In this document: in pieces, positions 1,566 through 51,607 of the stretch
How the letters are laid out: each line of letters begins with the position of its first letter
How positions within the stretch are numbered: position 1 is the stretch's first letter
DNA from: Brachyspira hampsonii
GTDB taxonomy: Bacteria; Spirochaetota; Brachyspiria; Brachyspirales; Brachyspiraceae
Assembly (NCBI RefSeq): GCF_002214805.1
Contig: NZ_CP019914.1
Coordinates: 992,001-1,056,000 of the forward strand
DNA length: 64,000 nucleotides
Reading direction: 5' to 3'
The notes under the pieces: model-generated
Told to the model about the DNA's origin: nothing
Databases searched by the model: none
Seen by the model: the letters and a program-made list of their open reading frames with translations, nothing else
Made by a program: the position numbers and the translations under genes

Positions 1566-1715
1566 ATGCATAAATACAAACCTCAAACTATAGAAGAATT
1601 GCAAAAGTTGGTGAAAGATGAAAATACATATTTAGGTGATATTGATACAAGTTTAATTACTGATATGAGCAGATTATTTAGAAATACATTTTTCAGGTTA
1701 GCCTATAGAAAATAA
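1566..1715 (+). pseudogene. N-terminal fragment of a BspA-repeat/DUF4132 family gene
   Basis: A 49-codon reading frame whose first ~38 residues (MHKYKPQTIEELQKLV...) match the N-terminus of the large gene at 2126, with several synonymous differences. After the phrase ITDMSRLFR the similarity ends and a stop follows 12 codons later. It has its own AGGA ribosome-binding site seven bases before the ATG. It reads as the left-over start of an older paralogue whose repeats and C-terminal part are gone. The divergence argues against a recent duplication. A short expressed peptide cannot be excluded. Confidence 0.65.
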
Positions 1716-1767
1716 TCCTCTTTCTTTGTATATAGTAAATTAAAAAATAAAATTTTATTATAACTCC

Positions 1768-1959
1768 CCCGCCCTTTATATTTTTTTGTTTTAATTAACT
1801 ATTTTATTTTCATAATATTTATAACTTTATTAGAATTTTTAGCACCCGCCCAAATTGGTTTAAATTTGTTGTATTTTCACCGCACGCAAAACTATATTAA
1901 AAAATTAATTTCATTATTGATACAATTTAAATTTATTATAAAAGTGAATTCAGCGTGCG
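1768..1959. repeat. Dispersed intergenic element, copy A
   Basis: This fills most of the 410-bp gap before the BspA-type gene. It holds CCCGCCC at 1768, a second CCCGCCC 77 bases later at 1845, then CGCACGC at 1881, whose exact reverse complement GCGTGCG lies at 1953. The same four landmarks with nearly the same spacing occur at 51413-51607. The rest is AT-rich and contains no open frame of note. Confidence 0.55.
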
Positions 1960-2125: not shown

Positions 2126-4327
2126 ATGATGAAATACAAACCTCAAACTAGAGAAGAATTACAAAAGTTAGTACAAGATGAAAATATTTACTTGGGCGAT
2201 ATTGACACTAGTTTAATTACCGACATGAGCGGATTATTTTCTTTAATAAAAAGAGAAGATTTTTCTGGTATAGAAGATTGGAATGTTTCTAATGTTATTG
2301 ATATGAGTTTTTTATTTATTGAATGCAATATTTTTAACGAAGACATTTCAAATTGGAATGTATCTAATGTACAAACTATGAGAGGCATGTTTGAATTCTG
2401 CAATAGCTTTAATCAAAATATAAATGATTGGAATATAAGTAATGTAAAAGATACAGCATTTATGTTTAAAAGCTGCCGTAATTTTAATCAGCCTTTGGAT
2501 AAATGGGATACTTCTAATATTGAATATATGAATGGAATGTTTAAAGGCTGTACTAATTTTAATCAAAATATAAATGATTGGAATACAAGTAAAGTTAAGG
2601 ATATGTCACTTATGTTTAGAGGCTGTATAGATTTTAATCAGCCATTAGATAAATGGGATACTTCTAATGTAATAAGTGCTACTGGTATGTTTATGAATTG
2701 TAGAAATTTCAATCAAAATATTAATAATTGGAATGTTTCTAAATTAGAATATGCAAATAATATGTTTGAAGAATGCTGGAATTTCAATCAGTCTTTAGAT
2801 AAATGGAATACTTCTAGTGTAATAAGTACTGCTAGTATGTTTAAGCATTGTATAAACTTCAATCAAAATATTAATAATTGGAATGTTTCTAAATTAGAAT
2901 ATGCAAATAGTATGTTTGAAGATTGTTATAGTTTTAATCAGCCTTTAGATAAATTGGATACCTCTAATTTGAAATATATATCAAATATGTTTAAATTTTG
3001 CTATGAATTTAATCAGCCATTAAATACTTGGAATACATCTCAAATTATAGAAATGGATTATGTTTTCGATAAAGCTAAAAAGTTCAATCAGCCTTTAGAT
3101 AATTGGGACACTTCTAATGTAGTATCTATGCAATGTTTATTTTATGATGCAGAAAGTTTTAATCAGCTTTTGGGTACTTGGAAAGTTAATAAAGTAGAAA
3201 ATATGATTGGAATGTTATTCAGAAGCGGTTTTCAGTATTATGATTCTTTAGAGGATTGGAATATTGAATCTCTTGAGTATTTAGGCGATTGGTCTGATGT
3301 TATTTCTAAAAATATAGATAAATTAAGTTTGAAATGGATTTTATATTTATATGCTTTTGATAATGAACATAAAATTATAATAAAAAAAATAGAAGAAAAT
3401 ATAAAAGAGATTTATAAAATAGCTTCAGAAATAAAAAATAAAAAAGTTCAATCAGCTAAAAGAAAATTAGAAAATATTTATTTTAATGATTTAAAAGAAT
3501 TTCTTAATTATCAATTATTTGATACTATTGAACAATATGAAGAAAGTATCAATAAAAAATTAAGTAGAAAAGATGAAAAGAAAGTTTCTTATATAGAAAA
3601 TTGTAATGTGCTAATAAAAGATAAATCAAGAGAAGCTGATACAAGAGTAATAAAATATATATATTTAAAATATTTGGAGCTTAAAAGAGACATTTATCAT
3701 CTTATTGAAATTGACTCTATTATTAATTTACTTGACAGAGAAAGTTTTTTGACTTTTGCTAAAAATATTTATATAGAAACATATAAAGAAGCTGCTGTTG
3801 TTGTTTATAGTTTATACGGAGGAGATGAGGCTTTAAGAGAAATATACAAAAAAGAGAAAGACTCTAATTTCTTTTTGATAATTTTATCATCAGTAAAAAC
3901 AACAGAATATAGTATTAAATTATTATATGATATCTATTCAAAAACTAAAAAATCAGAATTGAGAGAAGAGGCTTTTAATTTACTAAATAAAATATCAAAA
4001 GAAATAGGACTTGATATTAATGATTTAGAATTGAAGTTTACTTCTAATTTCGGATTTGATACAAAAGGTGAAAAAATTATTAATGATGATTATAAATTGA
4101 TTTTAAATAGTGATTATTCTGTGAATGTATTTGACATAAAAAATAATAAGGTATTAAAGGCAGTATCCAAAAACTTTGATGATAACATAAAAGAAGAAAT
4201 AAAATATATTAAAAATGAAATTCCAAAAGTGATAAAAAAACTTTCTATAAAATTAACTAAATCATTGATGTATGAGAAAAATATAATTATGCTTTCTTTA
4301 AGGAGGTATTTATTGATAATCCTTTAA
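2126..4327 (+). CDS. BspA-type repeat protein with DUF4132-like domain, 5' part of a frameshifted gene
   Basis: Residues ~30-390 consist of about fourteen 25-residue BspA-type (DUF285) repeats of the form FNQPLDKWDTSNVxxMxxMFxxCxx. After them comes an all-helical region that leads into a DUF4132-like C-terminal domain. There is no signal peptide, so this differs from secreted BspA surface proteins and is probably cytoplasmic or exported in another way. The last ~14 residues (after MYEKN) do not fit the domain. The expected continuation lies one base out of frame and runs into the next ORF. ATGATG at the start leaves a one-codon ambiguity; AGGA at 2116 supports either. Repeats are also nearly identical in DNA, with a 150-bp offset between exact copies near 2711 and 2861. 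Confidence 0.8.
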   Translation: MMKYKPQTREELQKLVQDENIYLGDIDTSLITDMSGLFSLIKREDFSGIEDWNVSNVIDMSFLFIECNIFNEDISNWNVSNVQTMRGMFEFCNSFNQNINDWNISNVKDTAFMFKSCRNFNQPLDKWDTSNIEYMNGMFKGCTNFNQNINDWNTSKVKDMSLMFRGCIDFNQPLDKWDTSNVISATGMFMNCRNFNQNINNWNVSKLEYANNMFEECWNFNQSLDKWNTSSVISTASMFKHCINFNQNINNWNVSKLEYANSMFEDCYSFNQPLDKLDTSNLKYISNMFKFCYEFNQPLNTWNTSQIIEMDYVFDKAKKFNQPLDNWDTSNVVSMQCLFYDAESFNQLLGTWKVNKVENMIGMLFRSGFQYYDSLEDWNIESLEYLGDWSDVISKNIDKLSLKWILYLYAFDNEHKIIIKKIEENIKEIYKIASEIKNKKVQSAKRKLENIYFNDLKEFLNYQLFDTIEQYEESINKKLSRKDEKKVSYIENCNVLIKDKSREADTRVIKYIYLKYLELKRDIYHLIEIDSIINLLDRESFLTFAKNIYIETYKEAAVVVYSLYGGDEALREIYKKEKDSNFFLIILSSVKTTEYSIKLLYDIYSKTKKSELREEAFNLLNKISKEIGLDINDLELKFTSNFGFDTKGEKIINDDYKLILNSDYSVNVFDIKNNKVLKAVSKNFDDNIKEEIKYIKNEIPKVIKKLSIKLTKSLMYEKNIIMLSLRRYLLIIL

Positions 4328-51314: not shown

Positions 51315-51412
51315 AAATAATATTACATAGAAAAATTCATTTTAAGATTATTAATTATAATAATACTATATGATAAAAATAAAGGGTTGGTATTCTAAAT
51401 TTTATTAGAATG

Positions 51413-51607
51413 CCCGCCCTTTTTCCTTATTGTTATAATTAGTTATTTTTAACTTTTTATTTCTATTTTATGAATACAGAAATAATATGCCCCACCCTAT
51501 TTTTTTTAAATTTATTATATATATCATCACGCGTTTAAAATAAAAATTATATTAAAAATTATTCTATAATATAATTTTTTTATGCTTTTTAATCTAATCA
51601 CCGCGTG
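51413..51607. repeat. Dispersed intergenic element, copy B
   Basis: CCCGCCC at 51413, CCCACCC 78 bases later at 51491, CACGCG at 51528 and its complement CGCGTG at 51602. Landmarks and distances match copy A at 1768-1959 within two bases. It fills the 376-bp gap between deoB and the nucleotidase terminator; no gene is seen there. Confidence 0.55.

What the first reader, a model, noticed from the sequence alone, without database searches (positions are those of the whole stretch)
1768..1959. A ~190-bp intergenic element in two copies with fixed landmark spacing
Copy A (1768-1959) and copy B (51413-51607) share CCC[GA]CCC, a second CCC[GA]CCC 77/78 bases on, then a 6-7 base GC arm 36/37 bases on, then its exact complement 72/74 bases later. 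The intervening AT-rich sequence diverges, but TTTAAATTT[AG]TT[AG]TAT is shared. The arms differ (CGCACGC vs CACGCG) yet each stays complementary, which suggests compensatory change and selection on pairing. It may be a mobile miniature element, a structured RNA or a nucleoid site.
Basis: seen in the sequence. Interest (0 to 1): 0.6.

Follow-up and report, generated by a model that had tools for sequence, protein, structure and literature searches.

The report
Spacing-locked repeat family in Brachyspira chromosomes
The two look-alike spots belong to a family of one to two hundred non-coding DNA elements in nearly every species of the gut spirochaete Brachyspira; evolution has frozen their short GC-rich marks and the distances between them while the DNA in between changes freely, which suggests that they are docking platforms for an unknown DNA-binding machine.

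Summary
Both copies belong to a dispersed intergenic family: 184 two-box copies and 118 arm pairs in the 3.19-Mb genome, and arm pairs in 24 of 26 Brachyspira species (reversed control zero). No convincing copy was found in the rest of the phylum (two-box test only). The full unit is a ~344-bp near-palindrome: CCCRCCC–77–CCCRCCC–37–CGCACG–74–CGTGCG–37–GGGYGGG–77–GGGYGGG, joined to the next by a 42-bp connector. Copies A and B are half units. Between species, box and arm bases almost never change while spacers change at or above the intergenic rate. Distances stay within 1–2 bp although indels occur. Boxes without any complementary box nearby are equally conserved, so hairpin pairing is not what preserves them. 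No RAYT gene, target duplication or recent spread was found. Copies cluster around the GC-skew switch that the literature takes as the replication origin, far from dnaA. Best reading: a multi-site DNA platform for an unidentified nucleoid or chromosome-domain protein, working like a BIME but not a REP/RAYT member. The function is inferred.

The parts
1768..1774 (+). Copy A, outer box C1 (CCCGCCC)
1845..1851 (+). Copy A, inner box C2 (CCCGCCC, followed by AA; family consensus CCCRCCCAAG)
1881..1887 (+). Copy A, left arm CGCACGC (class I)
1953..1959 (+). Copy A, right arm GCGTGCG, complement of the left arm; no G boxes follow, so copy A is a half unit
51384..51390 (+). Copy B, degenerate G box (GGGTTGG) that forms a hairpin with C1, downstream of deoB
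   Evidence: sequence; inference
51413..51419 (+). Copy B, outer box C1 (CCCGCCC)
51491..51497 (+). Copy B, inner box C2 (CCCACCC)
51528..51533 (+). Copy B, left arm CACGCG (class II)
51602..51607 (+). Copy B, right arm CGCGTG (class II), matched to the left arm; kept in B. hampsonii 30446 (L157) and in L158

Best explanation
It is a genus-wide family of intergenic DNA elements built from short GC-rich protein-docking sites at fixed distances. The sites are GGGYGGG/CCCRCCC boxes in pairs 77 bp apart, and CGCACG...CGTGCG arms 74 bp apart. One or more still unidentified DNA-binding proteins read the boxes and arms as double-stranded DNA and need them at set distances, so the AT-rich DNA between can change but not lengthen or shorten by more than 1-2 bp. 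Head-to-head halves and ~344-bp tandem arrays would let such proteins bridge or wrap the DNA. The clustering around the GC-skew switch suggests that they organise a large chromosome domain around the replication origin (or the terminus, if the skew is read the wrong way), as BIMEs or macrodomain sites do elsewhere. Shown: the anatomy, copy number, selection on landmarks and distances, independence from pairing partners, intergenic placement and clustering.
For: Spacers changed 8.1% and 20.1%, other intergenic DNA 6.3% and 12.6%; at G/C sites the background is 23-56%. Distances: variance of the change 1.15 and 1.06 against about 8-15 and 25-45 for other intergenic stretches; 89-94% within 1 bp. 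Boxes without a complementary box are equally conserved. No strand bias relative to genes. 125 of 130 footprints lie outside ORFs although 80% of the held DNA is coding. Copies centre at ~1.65 Mb in this genome (R=0.61; 0.54 for loci >5 kb apart), where third-position GC skew switches sign between 1.53 and 1.68 Mb, and near coordinate 0 in G008; the B. [quoted passage not shown]
Against: No protein partner is known or was looked for directly. Palindromic matching of the arms is also what a hairpin or cruciform would need. All landmarks of complete elements do pair in predicted folds (19 of 20, z about -6), although inverted GC boxes in AT-rich DNA must fold that way. Clustering could follow the flexible, less coding-dense part of the genome rather than a domain function; the literature notes that genes at the skew origin vary greatly between species (PMC3532143). 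Three of 26 species lack the two-box form and two of these also lack arm pairs, so it is not indispensable in the genus.
Confidence: 0.45

Rival explanations
1. The element acts as RNA or as a hairpin: read through from either side, boxes and arms pair to form a large rod that ends transcription or insulates convergent genes.
For: Convergent gene pairs are over-represented (54 of 130 footprints; among element-free gaps of at least 150 bp only 5 convergent). The connector AAAGGGYGGG...CCCRCCCTTTA resembles a two-way terminator. At deoB the element's first box forms the only evident terminator hairpin. Arms are matched by class. Complete elements fold well.
Against: Boxes without a complementary box are equally conserved; spacers do not covary; connector centres are non-complementary in 63 of 67 cases and never C-G; only three T follow the box; no strand bias; fixed distances across unpaired loops are not needed for a terminator; convergent gaps may simply be where insertions do no harm.
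Confidence: 0.25
2. It is a miniature mobile element: copies were spread by a transposase acting on the boxes or arms and now persist.
For: ~184 copies, tandem copy-number differences of one ~344-bp unit between sister species (locus 1634642), presence or absence at orthologous sites such as downstream of deoB.
Against: No Y1/REP-type transposase in 26 genomes; no clean insertion with target duplication among five presence/absence cases, only imprecise partial differences; none in phage, plasmid or viral collections; neutral junk would not keep landmarks and distances while the rest drifts.
Confidence: 0.15
3. The boxes act as G-quadruplex halves: GGGYGGG-77-GGGYGGG on one strand supplies four G runs with one-base pyrimidine loops.
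For: The centre base changes at a near-neutral rate but almost only C to T or back (11/45 and 8/25 changed), the pattern expected of a one-base pyrimidine loop; box pairs are direct repeats 74-81 bp apart.
Against: A long-loop quadruplex does not need a distance fixed to 1-2 bp; it explains neither arms nor connector. A protein that accepts GGGCGGG and GGGTGGG would give the same pattern.
Confidence: 0.08
4. They are recombination or inversion sites: inverted pairs around the origin mediate symmetric inversions.
For: Symmetric rearrangements around the skew origin are reported in Brachyspira (PMC3532143, PMC3163572), and copies are inverted and clustered there.
Against: Paralogues share only ~70% identity, too little for homologous exchange except within tandem arrays; recombination would not by itself conserve landmarks and distances in place.
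Confidence: 0.07

Closest known systems
REP/BIME elements of enterobacteria and pseudomonads
   Same: Dispersed intergenic palindromes, hundreds per genome, alternating orientation, clustered units with fixed spacing, few in promoter regions (family features from my own knowledge).
   Different: Unit ~344 bp with six landmarks rather than a 20-40 bp palindrome; no RAYT/Y1 transposase in the genus; landmarks and distances conserved while spacers drift.
Macrodomain or nucleoid sites (matS of MatP, parS of ParB, Noc sites)
   Same: Many dispersed copies concentrated in one chromosome region defined by replication (family features from my own knowledge).
   Different: Those are single short palindromes; here each element is a multi-site platform with locked distances, and no binding protein is known.
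Enterobacterial intergenic repeat units RU-1/RU-2 and MITEs
   Same: 100-200 bp non-coding dispersed repeats (RU lengths from the abstract of PMC2759123).
   Different: No terminal inverted repeats with target duplications found; selection on internal landmarks.

Membership tests
REP/BIME (RAYT-associated) | Intergenic palindromic units in alternating orientation, many copies | tested here: met
REP/BIME (RAYT-associated) | Cognate Y1/RAYT transposase in the genome or genus | tested here: not met
   PF01797 absent from all 26 genus genomes, five control genomes positive
REP/BIME (RAYT-associated) | Short (20-40 bp) imperfect palindrome unit | tested here: not met
   unit ~344 bp with landmarks at 77/37/74/37/77/42 bp
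MITE | Terminal inverted repeats with target-site duplication at empty/occupied sites | tested here: not met
   five presence/absence cases (two of them the same locus), all imprecise, none with a duplication; small sample
MITE | Cross-mobilising transposase | not tested
   only the Y1 family was searched
Structured RNA family (Rfam) | Match to a curated covariance model | tested here: not met
   no Rfam match in the window
Structured RNA family (Rfam) | Compensatory change that maintains helices | tested here: inconclusive
   arms matched by class but boxes and spacers do not covary
Macrodomain/nucleoid site family | Confined to one replication-defined region | tested here: met
   84% in the dnaA-distal half, centred on the skew switch; enriched there, not exclusive
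Macrodomain/nucleoid site family | Specific binding protein | not testable with these tools
   none known

The most novel reading that the evidence does not exclude
A previously undescribed, Brachyspira-specific chromosome-organising system: often more than a hundred multi-site DNA platforms per genome, each with up to six protein-docking landmarks at locked distances, mark the origin-side domain of a chromosome whose origin is not linked to dnaA, and are read by an unknown protein complex.
Probability: 0.3. Interest if true: 0.85.

Novelty: new variant of a known kind. Interest (0 to 1): 0.62.

Why it matters
Most intergenic repeats in bacteria decay as junk. Here both the short marks and the distances between them are under strong purifying selection in up to a hundred or more copies per genome across a genus. 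That gives a ready bait for finding a new DNA-binding machine, and a marker for the unsettled question of where Brachyspira chromosomes begin replication. I found no description of it in the five Brachyspira genome papers searched.

Tried and rejected
Rfam: no match. RAYT/Y1 transposase: absent. Phage, plasmid and viral collections: no true copies; 55 pattern matches in viral contigs all have spacers of at least 40% GC, so chance. Empty sites with target duplications: none clean. Hairpin as the cause of box conservation: rejected. Simple terminus clustering by distance from dnaA: revised after the skew sampling and PMC3163572. DnaA-box clusters in held DNA: none. The control of the first two-box pattern search was uninformative because that pattern reads the same backwards; asymmetric patterns were used afterwards.

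Full report
1. Observation. The window is G000:C1:992001-1056000 of a 3,189,639-bp single-contig genome. The organism is a Brachyspira: its deoB product is 97% identical to that of B. hampsonii 30446.

2. The family. Copy A aligns to 64 other places in its own genome at 67-81% identity. The two-box pattern has 92+93 places. Box1 to box2 is 74-81 bp (mode 77-78), box2 to arm mostly 36-39, arm to arm 72-76. Neighbouring box pairs lie at three quantised offsets: about 120 (-+), 225 (+-) and 344 (same strand). The skeleton is therefore CCCRCCC-77-CCCRCCC-37-CGCACG-74-CGTGCG-37-GGGYGGG-77-GGGYGGG, and the next unit follows by a connector of 42 bp start to start with the conserved form GGGYGGG..ATGTAATTAA..TTAATTACAT..CCCRCCC. 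20 complete units were found in held DNA; many are halves, as copies A and B are. The arm-pair pattern gives 118 places in the whole genome and 129 in G008, reversed control 0 in both. Across the genus 24 of 26 species have arm pairs (2 to 145 per genome), control 0 everywhere. The two-box pattern is present in 23 of 26 species and, outside the genus, in 1 of 172 genomes sampled across the phylum (a single match, at the level of the control). The three genomes of other genera in the family had none.

3. Selection. Own loci were aligned with 640 kb of G004 and 400 kb of G008, whose contig length of 3,304,788 bp I recognise as B. intermedia PWS/A. Landmarks present in either species were counted. 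Box flank bases: 2/270 and 0/150 changed; arms 0/144 and 1/66. Spacers 8.1% and 20.1%; other intergenic DNA 6.3% and 12.6%. At sites that are G or C in either species, spacers changed 35% and 56%. Distances between landmarks did change (28% and 57% of cases) but nearly always by 1-2 bp: variance 1.15 and 1.06, against about 8-15 and 25-45 for comparable stretches of other intergenic DNA. The sample is small (14 and 7 footprints for substitutions; 68 and 70 distances), but the contrast is very large. Both the marks and their distances are thus under purifying selection in place, while the filling is not.

4. Pairing or binding? If boxes were kept for hairpins, those without a complementary box nearby should decay. 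They do not: 3/318 sites changed in paired boxes without a complementary box within 460 bp, 10/552 in those with one. The left and right 77-bp spacers of one element are no more complementary than those of different elements (0.504 versus 0.516). The box centre (R on the C strand) changes freely between G and A, does not covary as a pair, and in the connector is non-complementary in 63 of 67 cases with a standard centre and never C-G. One orthologous double change (locus 607635, G-C to A-T) is compensatory. Arms do stay matched: class I 109, class II (copy B) 9, CGCATG/CATGCG 3, mixed I/II 0. Read in register this is change on both sides at three of six pairs, but class II looks like one subfamily, so independent events are few. 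In the copy-B orthologues the seventh pair is T-A here and G-T in B. hampsonii and L158. A dyad read by a dimeric protein, or a cruciform, would both demand this.

5. Placement. 125 of 130 footprints avoid ORFs; 54 convergent, 54 tandem, 22 divergent. There is no strand preference. The copies cluster: 84% lie in the half of the chromosome away from dnaA, mean 1.65 Mb. Third-position GC skew in twenty 20-kb samples switches from negative to positive between 1.53 and 1.68 Mb, that is at the centre of the cluster. In G008 the mean is within ~0.05 Mb of coordinate 0, with 45 unlisted positions spread evenly over the range in which they must lie. The B. intermedia paper says its file starts at the skew-defined origin and that this origin is not linked to dnaA (PMC3163572); a B. 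pilosicoli paper agrees and adds that genes at the origin vary between species (PMC3532143). Whether the switch is origin or terminus is not proven; earlier papers placed the origin at dnaA (PMC2650404, PMC2897892).

6. Origin and turnover. Sister species differ by whole 344-bp units in arrays and by partial, imprecise differences; presence downstream of deoB varies between species. No Y1 transposase exists in the genus genomes searched; no copies in phages, plasmids or viral contigs. The family is old, mostly inherited in place, and slowly lost.

7. Mechanism. I favour double-stranded DNA platforms for an unidentified protein complex that organises the chromosome domain around the skew switch. 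The steps from anatomy to selection are shown; protein and role are inferred. The rivals are listed with their tests. It works like a BIME or macrodomain site; it is not a member of the RAYT-linked REP family.

Noticed in passing
window 1567-1716: A truncated copy of the start of the adjacent BspA-like gene (2126-4327) lies just upstream of copy A, so copy A sits between a gene fragment and its intact paralogue.
   Followed up: no
L159, L161, L163, L169 downstream of deoB: A second repeat (TATACCTAAACAACTATATT.TGTC followed by a GC-rich CCCCACTTCTTTTG stretch) occurs next to or fused with truncated elements in other Brachyspira.
   Followed up: no
L165 downstream of deoB: A run of AAAAC pentamer repeats lies near the start of the next gene; it looks like a slippage tract.
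   Followed up: no
G000 2,957,080 and about 1.6 Mb: dnaA lies far from the GC-skew switch, as published for other Brachyspira; no DnaA-box cluster was seen in the DNA held.
   Followed up: partly
G000 2,500,001-2,520,000 (L240): A 20-kb stretch with all genes on one strand, few genes and 13 arm-type hexamers; not examined further.
   Followed up: no
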